Positions 47 to 55,402 of a DNA stretch of 64,000 nucleotides are shown piece by piece. The notes below the pieces were generated by a model, which saw nothing but the letters and a program-made list of their open reading frames with translations, was not told the origin of the DNA and did no database searches. The stretch is taken from NCBI GenBank assembly GCA_024760905.1, contig CM045733.1, forward strand, positions 22,603,501 to 22,667,500, written 5' to 3'. The position numbers were made by a program, and so were the translations under genes. The stretch is from Plotosus lineatus (taxonomy: Eukaryota; Chordata; Actinopteri; Siluriformes; Plotosidae). Every line of letters begins with the position of its first letter. Position 1 is the first letter of the stretch.

Positions 47-400
47 CAGGGGTCGGCAACCCAAAATGTTCAAAGAGCCATATTGGACCAAAAAATTAAA
101 AACAAATCTGTCTGGAACCGAAAAAAATTAAAACCCTCATATAAGCTTTATATGAAGGCAACACAGGTTGTAAGTGTATATTAGCCTGCTATCAAAATGA
201 CTAAGTAGGCTACAAATACATAATGAGCATTCATGATTAAATGTTTATTTTCCCTGCAGCGCATTCTGGAGAGAATGATACCACCTGACTACTCTGTTTT
301 ACAATATTTTGTGCTTGAACTTTAACTTCCATTACTATATTGATGTATTAGGTTTTGTTGCATTGATGAAATTATAGAAATTCAATAAAGAAATCAGCGG

Positions 401-3246
401 ATGGGCATCCGGCGTAAAACAAATGCCAAATAAAATATGCGAGTCACTACAAAGAATGTCATACCGGATCGGTCGAGGCCCGGGTTAACAACGACCGCCA
501 TCAGTGCTGTCAACCAACAGGGTGCTGGTGGAAATCGGACAACTGTTGGTTGAAGACGTCGAAGAAGGAGAAGCGGGAGGCGTGTCCGTAGGCAGAGAGA
601 GAAGAGGAAAGGCATGAGTCTAGGACTGAAAGTAGGGACTTTGAATGTTGGAACTATGGCAGGAAAAGGTAGAGAGCTGGCTGACATGATGCAGAGGAGG
701 AAGGTGGACATACTGTGTGTTCAGGAGACCAGGTGGAAAGGTAGCAAGGCTAGAAGCTTAGGAGCAGGGTTTAAACTGGTTTATCATGGTGTGGATGGGA
801 AGAGAAATGGAGTAGGAGTCATCTTGAAGGAAGGGTTTGTCAGGAATGTTCTTGAAGTAAAAAGAGTGTCAGACAGAGTGATAAGTCTCAAGTTAGAAAT
901 TGAAGGCGTGATGTTCAATGTTGTTAGTGCTTATGCCCCACAGACAGGATGTGAGCTAGAAGAGAAGGAGAGATTCTGGAGTGAGTTAGAAGAAGTGATG
1001 CAGAGTACCTCAGAGGTGAAAGAGTGGTCATTGGTGCAGACTTCAATAGACATGTTGGCGCAGGAAACAGAGGGGATGAGGAAGTGATGGGGAGGTTTGG
1101 TATCCAGGACAGGAACACAGAAGGACAGATGTTGATCGATTTTGCAAAAAGGATGGAAATAGCTCTGGTGAATACTTTCTTCCAGAAGAGACAGGAGCAT
1201 AGGGTGACTTATAAAAGCGGAGGTAGGAGCACACAAGTAGACTACATCTTGTGCAGGCGATATAATTTGAAGGAAGTCAGTGACTGCAAAATAGTAGTGG
1301 GTGAGAGTGTTACCAAACAGCATAGGATGGTGGTGTGCAGGATGAGGCCGATGGTGAGGAAGGTGAAGAAGGCAAAGGCAGAGCAGAAGACAAAGTGGTG
1401 GAAGCTGAAAAAGGAAGAGTGTCGTGTTGCCTTCGAGGAGTTGAAACAGGCTTTGGGTGGCCAGGAAGTGCTTCCAGATGACTGGACAATGCCAAACAGA
1501 GGGTGTATGATGACTTGATGCTCAGTTGGAAAGTAAAGAGGGAGAAAATGATTTATACAGTTGTCACAGCAGAGAAATAGAGATGGGAAGGACATGCAGC
1601 AAGTTAGAGTGATTAAGGACAGAGAGGGAAATGTATTGACTGATGACAGAAGTGTGCTGGGAAGATGGAAAGAATACTTTGAAGAGTTGACGAATAAGGA
1701 AAATGAGAGAGAAAAAAAGAGTAGAAGAGGTGACCGTTGAGGACCAGGAAGTAGCAAAGATTAGTAAGGGTGAAGTGAGGAGGGCATTGAAGAGGATGAA
1801 GAATGGAAAGACAGTTGGTCCTGATGACATACCGGTGGAGGTATGGAAGTGTCTAGGAAAGGTAGCAGTAAATTTCCTGACAAGAACATTCAACAAGGTC
1901 TTAGAGAGTGAGAGGATGCCAGAGGAATGATGAAGAAGTGTGATGGTGCCCATTTTTAAGAACAAGGGGGATGTACAGAGTTGTGGCAACTACAGAGGGA
2001 TAAAGTTGATGAGCCATACAATAAAGTTATGGGAAAGAATAGTGGAAGCTAGACTAAGGGCAGAGGTCAGCATTTGTGAACAACAGTTTGATTTCATGCC
2101 AAGAAAGAGCACCACAGATGCAGTGTTTGCCTTAAGGATGTTAATAGAGAAGTACAGAGAAGGTCAGACGGAGCTGCATTGTGCCTTTGTGGATCTGGAG
2201 AAAGCATATGACAGGGTGCCGAGAGAGAGGAACTGTGGTATTGTATGAGGAAGTCTGGAGAGGCAGAGAAGTCTGTTAGAGTGGTGCAGGACATGTATGA
2301 GAGATGTAAGACAGTGGTGAGGTGTGCTGTCGGTGTGACAGAAGCGTTCAAAGTGGAGGTGGGACTGCATCAAGGGTCAGCTCTGAGCCCCTTCTTGTTT
2401 GCTATGGTGATGGACAGGCTGACAGACAAGGTTAGGCAAGAATCTCCATGGACTATGATGTTTGCAGATGACATTGTGATCTGTAGTGAGAGCAGAGAAC
2501 AAGTGCAGGAAAATCTAGAGAGGTGGAGGTATGCCCTGGAAAGCAGGGTTAGCCTCAGTAAAACAGAATACATGTGTGTGAATGCCAAGGACCCAAGAGG
2601 AACGGTGAGGTTACAGGGAGCAGAGATAAGGAAGGTGAAGGATTTTAAGTACTTAGGCTCAACAATCCAGAGAAGTGGAGAGTGTGGAAAAGAGGTGAAG
2701 AAGCGTGTGCAGGCAGGTTGGAATGGTTGGAGAAACGTGTCCGGAGTGACGTGTGATAGGAGGGTATCGGCAAAAATGAAAGGAAAAGTGTACAAGACGG
2801 TGGTGAGGCCAGTGATGTTGTATGGTTTACAAACAGTGGCCCTGGGGAAAAGACAGGAGGCAGAGCTGGAGGTAGCAGAAATGAAAATGTTGAGGTTCTC
2901 TTTGGGAGTAACGAGGATGGATAGGATCAGGAATGAGCACATCAGAGGGACAGCACATGTAAGACGTTTTGGAGACAAGGTCAGAGAGGCTAGATTGAGA
3001 TGGTTTGGACATGTACAGAGGAGGGATAGTGAGTATCTTGGTAGTAGGATGCTGAGGTTGGAACTACCAGGCAGAAGGCCTAGAGGAAGACCAACGAGAC
3101 GATTCATGGATGTGGTGAAGCAGGACATGAAGCTAGCTGGTATAAGAGAAGAAGATGCAAAGGATAGGGTGAGATGGAGGCAGATGATTCGCTGTGGCGA
3201 CCCCTGAAGGGAAAAGCCGAAAGGAAAAGAAGAAAGAAGAAGAATG
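401..3246 (+). mobile_element. RTE-clade LINE copy 1, 5'-truncated
   Basis: Flanked by the perfect 13-bp duplication AAGAAATCAGCGG at 388-400 and 3247-3259. It starts inside the leader (GGGCATCCGGCGT) of the full copy at 21925 and ends with the shared tail GCTGTGGCGACCCCTGAAGG plus A/G-rich repeats. About 215 bp between endonuclease and reverse transcriptase regions are missing near 1490 relative to that copy. Confidence 0.9.
614..3207 (+). pseudogene. Broken RTE endonuclease/reverse transcriptase frame
   Basis: Frames in order: 614-1087 and 1024-1518 (apurinic-type endonuclease: VGTLNVGTM, ILCVQETRWKG, IGADFN, STQVDYILCRR, KQHRMVVC), 1703-1930, 1940-2248 and 2245-3207 (reverse transcriptase: [44 protein letters not shown]). 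The protein ends CGDP-stop only about 40 bp before the element's end. At least four frame breaks and the internal deletion make it inactive. Such frames are often misannotated as 'craniofacial development protein 2-like'. Confidence 0.9.
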
Positions 3247-3696
3247 AAGAAATCAGCGGCCCATCAGAATTTTATATACTTGCACGACAAGCGCTGTTTG
3301 TTCAATGTCAATCACATCACATGACTCATCACAGGATATTGAGTACAAAATTTGTTTCTGCCCCCTGTAGATTGGTTGCAGATGATGTGTACACCTCTTT
3401 TTTTCTCCTTCGCATACAAGTTATCAACATGATTGCTTGAATTGCGAAGTAATTTTTTTAGTGTTTTTAATGGTTATTTAAGCCCTGTGATGCCATTCAA
3501 ACTCCCTGCATCTATACAAATATTTAAAACCTTGGAAAATCTTAAGAATGTTTTTCAGGCTTGTCCTCCTACAGAAACCATATTTTAAAAAACATATTTT
3601 CCATTGTCATACATTTTATGAAAAAGCTCCAGGGAGCCACTAGGGTGGCGCTAAAGAGCCACATGCAGTTCACGCGCCGCGGGTTGCCAACCCCTG

Positions 3697-7109: not shown

Positions 7110-7441
7110 TTCATTCATTAATTTCCTGAACCAATTAATCCTAATTAGGGTCATGGAGAGGCTAATGCCCATTTCAGCCAACTCGGTGTAAAGGCAGACT
7201 GCTCAGCCCGCCAGGCCATTGCATGGCAGAAACATGCTGACGGCTATGCAGCTACTCAGGTCGAAAGTCAGCAATTGTTCTTTTACATGCCTCACACCAT
7301 GGACAGTAAGAGACATTGCCGGCCTTTGATAACCCAGTTTGCTGCACTGAGGGGACAGCAGTGACAACCGTTGACAGTGGGGCTTGTACCCCCAACCTTA
7401 GGATCGGTAATCCAGCACCTTACCACCGGGACACTACTGCC
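7110..7441 (-). mobile_element. Chimeric SINE B (head A + V-SINE tail), copy 1
   Basis: The plus strand starts with the V-SINE tail (TTCATTCATTAATTTCCTGA ... CTAATTAGGGTCATGG), switches at GGCAGAAACATGCTGACGG to the head-A body (GTCAGCAATTGTTCTTTTAC, ACAGTAAGAGACATTG) and ends with the head-A tRNA region. The same switch point recurs in three other copies. Confidence 0.75.
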
Positions 7442-10398: not shown

Positions 10399-10715
10399 AG
10401 TTCATTCATTTTCTGAACCGCTTAATCCTAATTAGGGTCACAGTGAGGTTGGCAACCATTCTTGGCAAGAACAGAGTACACCCTGGACAACTTGCCAGGC
10501 CATCGCAGGGCAGAAACACGCTGAGAACAATGCAGCAAAAGTCAGCAATGGCTCTTTTACACGCCTCTTACCACAGACAGTGAGAGACATTGCTGACCTT
10601 TGATAACCTCTTTAACGCACGAGGGGACAGCATTGACAACCATTGATAGCATGGCTTGAACCCGAGCCTTGGAATCGGTAATCCAGCACCTTACGACCAG
10701 GCAACCTTCACTAAT
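10399..10715 (-). mobile_element. Chimeric SINE B, copy 2
   Basis: Tail TTCATTCATTTTCTGAACCG through CTTGCCAGGCCATCGCAGGG, switch GCAGAAACACGCTGAG, then the head-A body and tRNA part ending near TACGACCAGGCAACC. Confidence 0.75.
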
Positions 10716-14327: not shown

Positions 14328-14407
14328 CCGCCGGCCAAATCAAATGTGCGAATCAAAGATTTGCTGTGACGACCCCTGAGAAAAAGGGAACAGCCAAAAG
14401 AAGAAGT
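14328..14407 (+). mobile_element. SINE A / RTE 3' tail fragment
   Basis: GGCCAAATCAAATGTGCGAA followed by GCTGTGACGACCCCTGAG and GGGAACAGCCAAAAGAAG, the shared SINE A/RTE terminus. Confidence 0.7.
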
Positions 14408-20905: not shown

Positions 20906-20965
20906 GTCGTGTGAACACCCACCCACCCAGTACTATTATATCTACTCTGATAATGAACATACTGT

Positions 20966-21320
20966 CTTGTCTGTCTTCTTTTCGGCTTTTTCCCTTTTAC
21001 TCGGGAGTCGCCACAGCGAATCATCTGATTCGCAGTTTGATTTGGCAGAGGTTTTTTACGTCGGATGCCCTTCCTGTCACAACCCTTTTTAGCAAGGGAC
21101 AGGAACACGCTGACGACTTTGCAGCCTACTCTTTACGAAGGTCAGCAATGGTTATTTTACATGCCTCTCACCAGAGACAGTGAGAGACATGGCCCGCCTT
21201 TGATAACCCAGTTAGCCGCACTGGGGGGACAGTGACAACCTTGTGGAGAGTGGGACTCGAACCCCCAACCTTTGGATCAGCGATCCAGCGCCCTATACCA
21301 CTAGACCACCACTGCCCCAG
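20966..21320 (-). mobile_element. SINE A, full length (tRNA head + RTE-derived tail)
   Basis: A 17-bp target duplication (one mismatch) flanks it at 20949-20965 and 21321-21337. On the minus strand: tRNA-like head with A box TGGTCTAGTGG (21308-21298) and B box GGTTCGAGTCC (21263-21253). A unique body follows (TCTCTGGTGAGAGGCATGTA), then GGGTTGTGACAGGAAGGGCA as at the 5' end of the RTE LINE, then GCTGTGGCGACTCCCG and AAGCCGAAAAGAAG as at its 3' end. Best copy of the family in the window. Confidence 0.9.
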
Positions 21321-21337
21321 GATAACGAACATACTGT

Positions 21338-21853: not shown

Positions 21854-21907
21854 TTTTATTATATTATTTATAATATTACTTTTAAATATTAATTATATTG
21901 CTCACTG
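21338..21907. other. Unassigned AT-rich DNA with (TTA)n
   Basis: An imperfect TTA/ATT microsatellite lies at about 21816-21850. Nothing else is supported. Confidence 0.5.
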
Positions 21908-21924
21908 GGGCTGTGTAGGGGGCA

Positions 21925-24900
21925 ATGCAGCCATGAGGTGGGGGGGCACTAACCAGTGTCTCTCCCCCTCATGCCGGTCCCAAGCCCGGAGAAATGCAGA
22001 GGGTTGTGTCAGGAAGGGCATCCGACGTAAAACCAATGCCAATTACTTAAAATGCAAATCAAAAGTATTACCTCCATACCGGATCGGTCGAGGCCCGGGT
22101 TAACAACGACCGCCATCAGTGCTGTCAATCAACAGGGTGCTGATGGAAATTGGACTACTGTTGGTCGAAGACGTCGAAGAAGGAGAGGTGGGAGGCGTGT
22201 CCGTAGGCAGAGAGAGAAGAGGAAAGGCATGAGTCTAGGACTGAGAGTGGGGACTTTGAATGTTGGAACTATGCACAGAAAAGGTAGAGAGCTGGTTGAC
22301 ATGATGCAGAGGAGGAAGGTGGACATACTGTGTGTTCAGGAGACCAGGTGGAAAGGTAGCAAAGCTAAAAGCTTAGGAGCAGGGTTTAAGCTATTTTATC
22401 ACGGTGTGGATGGGAAGAGAAATGGAGTCGGAGTCATCTTGAAGGAGGAGTTTGTCAGGAATGTTCTAAAAGTGAAAAGAGTGTCAGACAGAGTGATGAA
22501 TCTCAAGTTAGAAATTGAAGGTGTAATGCTCAATGTTGTTAGTGCTTATGCCCCACAGGCAGGATGTGAGCTAGAAGAGAAGGAGAGATTCTGGAGTGAC
22601 TTAGATGAAGTGATGCAGAGTACCCCCAGAGGTGAAAGAGTGGTCATAGGTGCAGACTTCAATGGACATGTTGGGGCAGGCAACAGAGGGGACGAGGAAG
22701 TGATGGGCAGGTTTGGTATCCAGGACAGGAACGCAGAAGGACAGATGTTGATAGATTTTGCAAAAAGGATGGAAATGGCTGTGGTGAATACTTTCTTTGA
22801 GAAGAAACAGGAGCATAGGGTGACTTATGAAAGCGGAGGTAGGCGCACACAGGTAGACTACATTTTGTGTAGGCGATGTAATTTGAAGGAAGTCAGTGAC
22901 TGCAAAGTCATCGTGGGTGAGAGTGTTGCCAAACAGCATAGGATGGTGGTGTGCAGGATGACTCTGATGGTGAGAAAGGTGAAAAAGGCAAAGGCAGAGC
23001 AGAAGACAAGGTGGTGGAAGCTGAAAAAGGAAGAGTGTCGTGTTGTCTTCAAAGAGGAGTTGAAACAGGCTTTGGGTGGCCAGGAAGGGCTTCCAAATGA
23101 CTGGACAACCACAGCAAATGTGATCAGGGACACAGGTAGGAGAGTACTTGGTGTGTCCTCTGGAAGGAAAGTAGATAAGGAGACTTGGTGGTGGAATGAG
23201 GAAGTGCAGGAGTGTGTACAAAGGAAGAGGTTAGCCAAGAAGAAGTGGGACATTGAGAGGACCGAAGAGAGTAAACAGGAGTACAGGGAGACACAGCATA
23301 AGGCGAAAGTAGCAGTGGCTAAGGCCAAACAGAGGGCATATGATGACTTGTATGATAGGTTGGATAGTAAAGAGAGAGAAAATGATCTATACAGGTTGGC
23401 ACAGCAGAGAAATAGAGATGGGAAGGACGTGCAGCAAGTTAGATTGATAAATGACAGAGAGGGAACTCTATTGACTAATGACAGAAGTGTGCTGGGAAGA
23501 TGGAAAGAGTACTTTGAAGAGCTGATGAATGAGGAAAATGAGAGAGAAAAAAAGAGTAGAAGAGGTAACCATTGAGGAGCAGGATGTAGCAAAGATCAGT
23601 AAGGGTGAAGTGAGAAGGGCATTGAAGAGGATGAAGAATGGAAAGGCAGTTGGTCCTGATGATATACCTGTGGAGGTATGGAAGTGTCTAGGAGAGGTAG
23701 CAGTAGATTTTCTGACAAGAACATTCAACACGGTACTAGAGAGTGAGCAGATGCCGGAGGAGTGGAGGAGAAGTGTGCTGGTGCCCATTTTTAAGAACAA
23801 GGGAGACGTGCAGAGTTGCAACAACTACAGAGGGATAAAGTTGATGAGCCATACGATGAAGTTATGGGAAAGAATAGTGGAAGCTAGACTAAGGGCAGAG
23901 GTCAGCATTTGTGAACAACAGTTTGGTTTCATGCCAAGAAAGAGCACCACAGATGCAATGTTTGCCTTGAGGATGTTAATAGAGAAGTACAGAGAAGGTC
24001 AGAGGGAGCTACATTGTGCCTTTGTGGATCTGGAAAAAGCATATGACAGGGTGCCAAGAGACGAACTGTGGTATTGCATGAGGAAGTCTGGAGTGGCAGA
24101 GAAGTATGTTAGAGTGGTGCAGGACATGTATGAGAGATGTAAGACAGTGGTGAGGTGTGCTGTCGGTGTGACCGACTAATTCAAGGTTGAGGTGGGACTG
24201 CATCAAGGGTCAGCTCTGAGCCCCTTCTTGTTTGCTATGGTGATGGACAGGCTGACAGACGAGGTGAGACAAGAATCTCCATGGACTATGATGTTTGCAG
24301 ATGACATCGTGATCTGTAGTGAGAGCAGAGAACAAGTGCAGGAAAATCTAGAGAGGTGGAGGTATGCCCTGGAAAGGAGAGGAATGAAGGTTAGCCTCAG
24401 AAAATCAGAATACATGTGTGTGAATGAGAAGGACCCAGGAGGAACGGTGATGTTACAGGGAGCAGAGATAACGAAGGTGGAGGATTTTAAGTACTTAGGC
24501 TCAACAATCCAGAGCAATGGAGAGTGTGGAAAAGAGGTGAAGAAGCGTGTGCAGGCAGGCTGGAATGGTTGGAGAAAAGTATCCGGTGTGATGTGCGATA
24601 GGAGAGTGTCAGCAAGAATGAAGGGAAAAGTGTACAAGATGGTGGTGAGGCCAGCGATGTTGTATGGCTTAGAAACAGTGGCGCTGAGGAAAAGGCAGGA
24701 GGCAGAGCTGGAGGTAGCGGAGATGAAAATGTGGAGGTTCTCCGGGGAGTAACGAGGATGGATAGGATCAGAAATGAGTATATCAGAGGGACAGCCCACG
24801 TAAGATGTTTTGGAGACAAAGTCAGAGAGGCTAGATTGAGATGGTTTGGACATGTACAGAGGAGGGATAGTGAGTATATTGGCAGTAGGATGCTGAGGTT

Positions 24901-25090
24901 GGAACTACCAGGCAGAAGGCCTCGAGGAAGACCGAAGAAGAGATTTATGGATGTGGTGAAGGAAGACATGAAGGTCGTTGGAGTCAGAAAAGAAGATGCG
25001 GAGGACAGGGTGAGGTGGAGGCGGATGATTTGCTGTGGCGACCCCTGAAGGGAGCAGCCGAAAGTAAAAGAAGAAGAAGAAGAAGAAGAA
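21925..25090 (+). mobile_element. RTE-clade LINE copy 2, essentially full length
   Basis: Bounded by a perfect 17-bp target duplication GGGCTGTGTAGGGGGCA (21908-21924 and 25091-25107). About 3.17 kb: leader, one long coding region, 3' UTR of only a few dozen bases ending in GAA repeats. The insertion site is the first bases of a SINE A copy that continues to the right. Confidence 0.93.
22052..25048 (+). pseudogene. RTE polyprotein, nearly intact (endonuclease + reverse transcriptase)
   Basis: Frame 22052-23575 holds a basic N-terminus (RRRRRRRGGRRVRR) and the apurinic-type endonuclease: RVGTLNVGTM, DILCVQETRWKG, VVIGADFNGHVG, RRTQVDYILCRR, AKQHRMVVCRM. Frames 23529-24179, 24192-24752 and 24731-25048 hold the reverse transcriptase: [87 protein letters not shown]. 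The C-terminal LRWFGHVQRRD and CGDP-stop follow. Only two frame shifts (near 23560 and 24750) and one stop (24177) separate it from an open frame. Insertion was by target-primed reverse transcription. Confidence 0.92.
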
Positions 25091-25101
25091 GGGCTGTGTA
25101 G

Positions 25102-25378
25102 GGGGCAGTGGTGGTCAAGTGGTATCCACAAGGTTGCCCCTCCGTGTACAGCTAACTGGGTTATCAAAGGCGGGCCATGTCTCTCACTGTCTATGGTGAG
25201 AGGCATGTAAAAGAACCATTGCTGACTTTCGTAAAGAGTAGCTGCATAACCGTCAGCGTGTTTCTGTCCTTTGCTAAAAAGGGTTGTGTCAGGAAGGGCA
25301 TCCGATGTAAAAACCTCTGCCAAATCAAACGTGATCATTCGCTGTGGTGATCCTGATAAAGGGAAAAGCCGAAAGGAA
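25102..25378 (+). mobile_element. SINE A, internally deleted; target of RTE copy 2
   Basis: GGGGCAGTGGTGGTCAAGTG begins the head; the B-box region is missing (it jumps to TATCCACAAGGTTGCCCCTC). The body GTAAAAGAACCATTGCTGAC and the RTE-like tail GGTTGTGTCAGGAAGGGCAT and GGGAAAAGCCGAAAGG remain. Confidence 0.8.
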
Positions 25379-25667
25379 ATCTCATCTGTTTACTGGGTCT
25401 GTGCAAGGTCCTTATAAATATAGAATTTTTATGTATTCATTTTATAGCAGTTTGTGTGTTGTTGATTTGAGCCTTCTTTTCCGTTTGTAACTTGACTCCT
25501 TGAACAACCACACAAGAATTCCTGTGTGTGTAAAAAACACAAACGGCGATTAAAAATCCTGAATCCTGATGTTCCCTTCAGCCTAATTTGTTCAATAGTT
25601 CAGGGTTCACTGGCTCGTGTATCCATCATGTGGACAGAAAGAGTACTACAACGGCACTTACAGGGAT

Positions 25668-30351: not shown

Positions 30352-47840
<17,489 letters not shown>

Positions 47841-54300: not shown

Positions 54301-55402
54301 CGGTTAATGGAAACCGAGACCCCCCCATTTCCATGAAGTAGAATCAACCCCCCACCCCGACTGACGTATACGTATATATGTGTATATCATCTTTTCTTTT
54401 CGGCTTTTTCCCTTTTCTCGGGAGTCGCCACAGCGAATCATCTGATTCGCACATTTGATTTGGCAGAGATTTTTACGTCAGATGCCCTTCCTGTCACAAC
54501 CCTTTTAGCAAAGGACAGAAACACGCTGATGGCTTTGCAGCTACTCTTTTCGAAAGTCAGCAATGGTTCTTTTACATGCCTCTCACCATAGACAGTGAGA
54601 GACATGGCCCGCCTTTGATAACCCGGTTAGCTACACTGGGGGGACAGTGACAGCCTTTGTGGGGACTCGAACCCCCAACCTTAGGATCAGCGATCCTAAG
54701 CCCTATCCACTAGACCACCACTGCCCCATATATATGTGTATATAATATCAATAAATGCATATTCAACACTATAAATGCTTATAATAACATTCAAACAATG
54801 TATAAAATGGAAATAAAATATAAATACAGGGATCCCTCGCTACTTTGCGCTTCAATGTGGCTCCAGTGTATCGCGGTGTTTTATTTTTTAAATATTCATC
54901 GAATTAAAAAATAAGGAAATTAAGGAAGAATAGGAGAAAAAGTTAAGGAAAATGCTGCAAAAACAAGGCCAATTATGCAAAAAAAAAAACCCCACAAACT
55001 AACAAAAAACACCCCAAAATCTCCCATCAAAACTAGTTACATTGTTGTGAGGTGTTGTGCATGTGCATCTGCATGCATGCACGCGCACGTCCGTATGTAT
55101 GTGTATTTATATTTTATTTACATCTTATGCTTTATTTTTGAATGTTTAATTGTTATTATAAGCATGTATAGCATTGAATATGTATTTATTGATAGTATAT
55201 ACACAAATACATGCACGTATACGTCAGTCAGGGGGTGTGTGGAGTTGGGGGTGATCCTACTTCGCGGATTTCAGTGGTCACGTGGGGATCTCGATGGTCA
55301 CGTGGGGACCTCGGTCCCAATTAACCGTGGAAAGAGAGGGATCTCTGTACACACACAGACGCATGCGCACACAGATATCCCCCCACGCGCGCGCACACAC
55401 GC

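What the first reader, a model, noticed from the sequence alone, without database searches (positions are those of the whole stretch)
20966..21320. SINE A looks like a tRNA head fused to both ends of the RTE LINE present in the same window
The minus-strand SINE has pol III A and B boxes and a unique body. It then carries a stretch matching the RTE 5' leader (compare 21042-21085 with 22001-22044, GGGTTGTGTCAGGAAGGGCA). Next comes a stretch matching the RTE 3' terminus (compare 20985-21020 with 25030-25065, GCTGTGGCGACCCCTGAAGG). A SINE built from internally deleted RTE ends plus a tRNA recalls the BovA/BovB arrangement in ruminants. The RTE machinery would be expected to recognise this tail. 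Several copies here have clean 12-17 bp target duplications.
Basis: partly seen in the sequence, partly recalled or inferred. Interest (0 to 1): 0.75.

Follow-up and report, generated by a model that had tools for sequence, protein, structure and literature searches.

The report
Fish SINE wearing both RTE ends
A very abundant short jumping element in what appears to be a fish genome has a tail made from both ends of a longer, recently active jumping element, an arrangement known from cattle and other mammals and useful for asking why such hitch-hikers keep both ends.

Summary
SINE A is tRNA head + body + RTE 5' leader + RTE 3' terminus. A 26-mer across the fusion occurs 17,274 times exactly in the 1.33-Gb genome, control 0; 18 of 19 readable junction loci have the SINE body. 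Both RTE matches survive with a consensus (0 of 2000 shuffles each).

Corrections. (1) The 3' piece fits an older RTE subfamily (48 of 50 bases) better than the window's RTE (43 of 48). (2) Head and body also occur with an unrelated tail (14 copies against 11 RTE-tailed in a sample): the tail was probably exchanged. (3) The RTE begins with a twister-type ribozyme core lacking stem P1; 27 of 30 young copies start exactly at its predicted cleavage site. The SINE lacks that core. (4) The fusion forms a perfect 7-bp hairpin. The same strands, 3 kb apart in the RTE, can usually pair across subfamilies, but with G-U pairs allowed this is no better than many shuffles: a hypothesis only.

Verdict: a Bov-tA-like SINE, new member of a known kind; mobilisation by RTE is inferred.

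The parts
20966..21320 (-). SINE A copy of the finding
   Evidence: 17-bp target duplication at 20949-20965 / 21321-21337
21242..21315 (-). tRNA-related head with A box 21298-21308 and B box 21253-21263
   Evidence: Rfam RF00005 33.6 bits; boxes
21089..21245 (-). SINE body, shared with copies that carry another tail
21026..21087 (-). RTE 5'-leader piece of the SINE tail
20976..21025 (-). RTE 3'-terminus piece of the SINE tail
21016..21033 (-). hairpin GCGAATC-AGAT-GATTCGC at the fusion of the two RTE pieces
21924..25090 (+). RTE-type LINE copy, interrupted frames, target duplication 21908-21924 / 25091-25107
21919..22007 (+). twister-P1-like ribozyme core at the RTE 5' end; predicted cleavage between 21923 and 21924; P1 5' strand is flanking DNA
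   Evidence: Rfam RF03160 52.3 bits, E 2.8e-11, below gathering 67.2; copy starts
22000..22061 (+). RTE leader after the ribozyme, up to the first codons (ATG at 22052); counterpart of the SINE's 5' piece
25024..25069 (+). RTE ORF end and 3' terminus; counterpart of the SINE's 3' piece
25103..25391 (+). older SINE A copy whose 5' edge received the RTE; its target duplication is 21904-21915 / 25392-25403, across the RTE
54391..54728 (-). SINE A copy, RTE tail
43570..43898 (-). SINE A copy, RTE tail, hairpin region deleted
31177..31521 (-). SINE A copy, RTE tail
34296..34624 (-). same head and body with the other, (TGAATGAA)n-type tail
7110..7441 (-). same head and body with the other tail
10401..10641 (-). 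same body with the other tail

Best explanation
SINE A is a tRNA-headed SINE. Its head and body also exist with another LINE-like tail; one lineage took on a composite tail copied from an RTE RNA, namely the leader between ribozyme and start codon joined straight to the last 50 or so bases of the RTE. Shown: the anatomy, one fixed fusion point in thousands of copies, target duplications, two tail types on one body, near-identical young copies of both the SINE and an RTE lineage. Inferred: transcription by RNA polymerase III from the tRNA-like head; copying by the RTE reverse transcriptase, which recognises the RTE-like 3' end; origin of the tail by a jump of reverse transcriptase within an RTE RNA and a second jump to an existing SINE; replacement of the other tail, in that order.
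For: Fusion 26-mer 17,274 exact copies, control 0; 18 of 19 readable junction loci have the SINE body, 0 of 19 the ribozyme; both matches beat 2000 of 2000 shuffles; 3' piece 48 of 50 identical to the older RTE type; the other-tailed copies of the same body; flanking repeats of 10 bp or more in 16 of 20 SINE copies and of 13 bp or more in 13 of 15 RTE copies with a recognised 3' end; young copies: SINE 1.7-4.4% from consensus in 21, RTE 40 of 40 scored places identical over 393 bp; A and B boxes, no TTTT.
Against: The young SINE tail ends in a GACA repeat, the RTE in a GAA repeat, and the SINE's GACTCCCGAGTAAAAGGG differs from every RTE 3' end seen, so the present-day partner is not matched exactly. 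No transcription or mobilisation was tested. Identities are measured to an RTE-tailed consensus, which favours calling the other-tailed copies older; the body tree has low support. The 20 SINE copies were the closest to the query, not a random sample.
Confidence: 0.82

Rival explanations
1. The RTE 5' piece is a passive remnant: an internally deleted, Bov-A2-like RTE existed first and was joined as a whole to the SINE body; only the 3' piece matters for copying.
For: Such elements without a tRNA head are listed for mammals (Bov-A2, MAR4, RTESINE1, RTE1-N1_LA; PMC3747384 Table 1). Some copies lack the hairpin region (window 43570-43898; L110), though these may be losses after insertion.
Against: No free deleted RTE was seen: among 19 readable junction loci 18 have the SINE body and one (L125) has the tail alone with no ribozyme; the one tail-only piece in the window (14334-14400) looks like a truncated SINE tail. 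The sample is small and only exact junctions were asked for.
Confidence: 0.4
2. The SINE is still copied by the LINE of its other tail or by a further LINE, and the RTE-like end is a hitch-hiker.
For: The tail repeat (GACA) differs from the RTE's (GAA); both tail types occur on the same body.
Against: The RTE-tailed copies end in RTE-like sequence and lack the other tail altogether; RTE-tailed copies are the closest to one another.
Confidence: 0.1
3. The shared stretches are chance or separate old fragments lying side by side.
For: The segments are short (45 and 47 alignment columns).
Against: 0 of 2000 shuffles each; 17,274 exact junctions, control 0; flanking repeats enclose the whole unit.
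Confidence: 0.01

Closest known systems
Bov-tA / Bov-A2 SINEs with the Bov-B LINE (ruminants)
   Same: tRNA head (tRNA-Glu in Bov-tA) and tail from an RTE-type LINE; Bov-A2 is listed as starting with the 5' end of Bov-B (PMC3747384 Table 1, read). That Bov-tA includes the Bov-A unit is recalled.
   Different: SINE A has a body between head and RTE pieces that also occurs with another tail; no sequence comparison with Bov elements was made.
MAR4, RTESINE1, RTE1-N1_LA (opossum, wallaby, elephant)
   Same: listed with the 5' end of an RTE plus an RTE tail (PMC3747384 Table 1)
   Different: no tRNA head is listed for them
CORE-SINEs (MIR with L2 tail, Mar-1 with RTE tail)
   Same: one SINE core listed with tails of different LINE clades, among them RTE (PMC3747384 Table 1), a precedent for tail exchange
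   Different: the SINE A body was not compared with the CORE domain; their RTE tail is not listed as holding the RTE 5' end
RTE retrotransposons with a 5' twister ribozyme
   Same: a review says truncated but active twisters are conserved at RTE 5' ends, cited there as in preparation (PMC7761336, passages); another paper cites twister variants in Schistosoma non-LTR elements (PMC11620745, passages; the cited paper itself is not held)
   Different: here the element starts are shown to fall on the predicted cleavage site in 27 of 30 copies; cleavage itself was not tested
HaSE1/HaSE3 (Helicoverpa)
   Same: SINE tail matching an RTE LINE, and one body and tail with two different heads (PMC3272025, abstract)
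   Different: there the head differs, here the tail

Membership tests
tRNA-derived SINE | tRNA-related head with pol III A and B boxes | tested here: met
   Rfam tRNA at two window copies; boxes in the consensus; ARAGORN found no tRNA gene in the window
tRNA-derived SINE | dispersed copies with target duplications | tested here: met
tRNA-derived SINE | transcribed by RNA polymerase III | not testable with these tools
   no expression data
RTE-tailed SINE holding both RTE ends (Bov-tA-like) | tail shares RTE 5' leader and 3' terminus, in this order, in a family consensus | tested here: met
RTE-tailed SINE holding both RTE ends (Bov-tA-like) | copied by the RTE protein | not testable with these tools
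   inferred from shared ends and target duplications
RTE-tailed SINE holding both RTE ends (Bov-tA-like) | sequence kinship with Bov-A units | not tested
   no Bov sequence was fetched
RTE clade LINE | AP-type endonuclease and reverse transcriptase | tested here: met
   Pfam PF03372 41.3 bits, PF00078 58.9 and 62.3 bits
RTE clade LINE | place in an RT tree | not tested
type-P1 twister ribozyme | covariance-model match with the conserved core | tested here: met
   E 2.8e-11 and 2.4e-9; 14 of 14 young loci given, of 30 held; 15 of 20 older loci
type-P1 twister ribozyme | Rfam gathering score 67.2 | tested here: not met
   best 59.9 bits; hence described as twister-like, lacking its own P1, not filed as a full member
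type-P1 twister ribozyme | stem P1 within the element | tested here: not met
   the strand upstream of the cleavage site is flanking DNA; P1 is reported dispensable for cleavage (PMC5408937, passages)
type-P1 twister ribozyme | self-cleavage | not testable with these tools
   needs transcription in vitro

The most novel reading that the evidence does not exclude
RTE RNAs close into a ring by pairing their start-codon region with the end of their ORF (8 bp, about 3 kb apart). SINEs with RTE tails keep both ends because the origin of the tail, or its recognition by the reverse transcriptase, uses this closed junction, which survives in the SINE as a local hairpin. This would explain two-ended RTE SINEs from cattle to opossum to fish. 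One G-C to A-U change on both sides between subfamilies, with a G-U intermediate, fits; one copy breaks the pair, and with G-U pairs allowed the complementarity is not beyond chance. Odds lowered from 0.25 to 0.15 because.
Probability: 0.15. Interest if true: 0.75.

Novelty: new member of a known kind. Interest (0 to 1): 0.45.

Why it matters
The SINE/LINE list in PMC3747384 (Table 1 read) has 14 rows under fish and none with an RTE partner. This pair has at least 17,274 exact fusion points and a LINE lineage with at least 40 places identical over 393 bp, so it is a practical system for asking what an RTE reverse transcriptase recognises and why its SINEs keep the LINE's 5' leader as well as its 3' end. 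The ribozyme result gives a reason for the LINE's exact 5' ends and shows that Rfam's curated cut-off passes over such P1-less twisters here.

Tried and rejected
Chance similarity and side-by-side fragments: rejected. Ribozyme inside the SINE: not found in 19 junction loci. Relatives elsewhere: a twister-core pattern in viral contigs gave 5 loci that match the RTE only over the 31-32-bp core, set aside; RTE-end patterns gave 0 in viral contigs and 0 in prokaryote genomes. DNA strings in papers: 2 papers hold one of six strings (listing only). A GATCCGC 3'-end subfamily: only 98 exact copies, not pursued. SINE heads right behind RTE 3' ends: 9 exact hits at one spacing, no proper expectation, left open. 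Genome-wide counts of the other-tail junction and of ribozyme cores: asked, never answered. My first complementarity test used a hand-typed composite for the older RTE leader; the repeat with real copies is weaker and replaces it. The older-type leader and 3' end, and the other tail, are likewise typed representatives, not computed consensus sequences.

Rows dropped or unread: L119 (mistyped, 115 bp) from 20 junction loci; L095 (overlaps L094) from the census; L047's SINE is the window copy again, so 12 RTE-tailed rows are 11 copies; of 20 young RTE 3' fetches 15 were recognised and 16; of 20 older and 10 type-M copies, 6 and 5 gave both ends.

Full report
Where it is. The window is part of a 1.33-Gb assembly of 30 contigs. 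Among the 120 best of 2587 relatives of its RTE protein, the named ones are of ray-finned fish (Hemibagrus, Pangasius, Pangasianodon, Channa, Acanthochromis; one row bears a metagenome source only). The host is taken to be a fish; the species is not known here.

Anatomy of SINE A. The copy at 20966-21320 (minus) has a tRNA-related head (33.6 bits), a body of about 157 bp and the RTE pieces, inside a 17-bp target duplication with one mismatch. A genome search with it gave 5837 first-look candidates; 40 were scored, 96-100% identical. Twenty were fetched with flanks. Consensus and members differ by 1.7-4.4%; 16 of 20 have an exact flanking repeat of 10 bp or more (L018, L019 and L026 in simple repeats); copies end in a GACA repeat. 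These are the copies closest to the query, not a random sample.

The RTE pieces. The consensus aligns to the RTE leader over 45 columns (score 64) and to the RTE 3' terminus over 47 (score 39); the best of 2000 shuffles was 31 each time. In the RTE the first piece starts at 22000, 76 nt in, just after a ribozyme core, and reaches the first codons of the ORF (ATG at 22052); the second holds the last ORF codons and the 3' end. The fusion 26-mer occurs 17,274 times, control 0. Of 20 fetched places one was mistyped; of the other 19, 18 have the SINE body, one the tail only, none the ribozyme.

Which RTE. A 27-mer of the older 3' end (GATTCGC type) occurs 14,253 times, control 0. The SINE's 3' piece matches a typed representative of that type at 48 of 50 aligned bases and the young type of the window copy at 43 of 48; for the 5' piece the types are alike (51 of 59 older, 51 of 60 type M, 52 of 59 young). 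The donor was probably of the older type. The SINE's GACTCCCGAGTAAAAGGG has no exact counterpart among the RTE 3' ends read, so the present partner is not pinned down.

Two tails. The same head and body occur with another tail ending in (TGAATGAA)n; the L2/CR1-type label used in my notes is recalled. In 253,573 bases (window plus 59 loci), bodies of 100 bp or more numbered 14 with the other tail, 12 rows (11 copies) with the RTE tail and 3 with neither; mean identity to the RTE-tailed consensus was 84% and 94%, a comparison that leans towards the RTE-tailed group. The tree has little support apart from one RTE-tailed cluster (0.917), so a single exchange is not shown.

The LINE. The copy at 21924-25090 has endonuclease and RT matches in interrupted frames. 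A 393-bp piece near its 5' end had 861 candidates; 40 were scored and all 40 are identical over 393 bp: very recent copying. Its target duplication covers the first bases of an older SINE A copy, whose own target duplication (21904-21915 and 25392-25403) lies on both sides of the RTE; the RTE landed in that SINE's 5' edge.

The LINE's 5' end. At curated cut-offs Rfam reports only two tRNA heads in the window. The permissive scan finds a type-P1 twister at 21919-22007 (E 2.8e-11) and in a second RTE copy (E 2.4e-9), in 14 of 14 young loci given of 30 held, and in 15 of 20 older ones; the best score is 59.9 against a gathering score of 67.2. Of 30 young copies, 27 begin at AATG(C/T)AGCC after unrelated flanks (base before it: T 12, C 7, A 7, G 1), which is where a twister would cut; 3 (L042, L051, L057) differ in the first ten or so bases. 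Of 20 fetched 3' ends 15 were recognised, and 13 of those have flanking repeats of 13 bp or more, two in simple repeats. The upstream strand of stem P1 would be host DNA. A review reports that twister lacking P1 cuts off a single nucleotide at almost the wild-type rate (PMC5408937, passages), and another that truncated active twisters are conserved in RTEs (PMC7761336, passages). Cleavage here is inferred. The SINE keeps only the last bases of the ribozyme match.

The hairpin. The fusion reads GCGAATC-AGAT-GATTCGC, a perfect 7-bp stem present in the minimum-energy and centroid folds; the whole tail is not unusually stable (z -1.55; 18 of 200 shuffles fold as well). Some copies lack it (43570-43898; L110). 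The same strands lie at both ends of the RTE. Read from the same copies: young type, GCAAATCA / TGATTTGC in 16 of 16 readable of 20 (one haplotype at the 5' end); type M, 5 readable of 10: three GCAAATCA / TGATTTGC, one GCAAATTA / TGATTTGC, one GCAAATCA / TGATTCGC, which breaks the pair (L182); older type, 6 readable of 20: three GCGAGTCA / TGATTCGC, one GTGAGTCA / TGATTCGC, one GCGAATCA / TGATTCGC, one GCGAATCA / TGATTTGC with a G-U pair (L148); the window copy at 399-3251, GCGAGTCA / TGATTCGC. The 20 older leaders themselves read GCGAGTCA 8, GCGAATCA 4, GCAAGTCA 2, GTGAATCA 2, GTGAGTCA 2, GCGACTCA 1, GCGGGTCA 1. So there is one two-sided change between subfamilies, with wobble pairs and one exception. 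Against it: with G-U allowed, 120 to 594 of 1000 shuffles do as well in the six copies tested; with Watson-Crick pairs alone only the young copy (35 of 1000) and L168 (28 of 1000) stand out, and the other four do not have this helix as their longest run. Both strands also code for protein, which could keep them alike: Hemibagrus P0032 starts MRIVSTNFIPDRSRPG and Channa P0100 ends RWRHMIRCGDP. The ring model is therefore a hypothesis.

How it most likely works. The SINE is read from its own tRNA-like head; its RTE-like 3' end is taken by the RTE reverse transcriptase at a nicked target. The composite tail probably arose when reverse transcriptase, copying an RTE RNA from its 3' end, jumped to the leader, and was joined to an existing SINE body. 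All of this is inferred from anatomy.

What is known. PMC3747384 Table 1 (read) lists RTE-ended SINEs in mammals and 14 fish rows, none with an RTE partner. Seven paper searches listed no paper that by title or abstract start describes this fish pair; they cover the open library only, and most listed papers were not opened. Dfam and Repbase were not available. Hence a new member of a known kind, as far as could be seen.

Noticed in passing
window 25065-25107; L088 and L104 near position 1500: RTE 3' ends followed within about 30 bp by a SINE head on the same strand (window copy plus 2 of 29 pattern loci). In the window the RTE inserted into the SINE's 5' edge; in L104 the junction is almost direct, which could also be an end-to-end template jump. 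A genome pattern at one spacing gave 9 exact hits, without a proper expectation.
   Followed up: partly
L034-L063; window 21938-22330: An RTE lineage with at least 40 places identical over 393 bp, a sign of very recent activity.
   Followed up: partly
L048 near 1487 (reverse strand of the locus): The 5' end of this RTE copy is partly repeated (ATGCAGCCATAATGGCATAATGCAGCC), perhaps a template jump at the end of reverse transcription.
   Followed up: no
L110; window 43570-43898: RTE-tailed SINE copies that lack the hairpin region at the fusion.
   Followed up: no
L001-L005: Five viral-collection contigs carry a near-identical twister core but no other RTE similarity.
   Followed up: no
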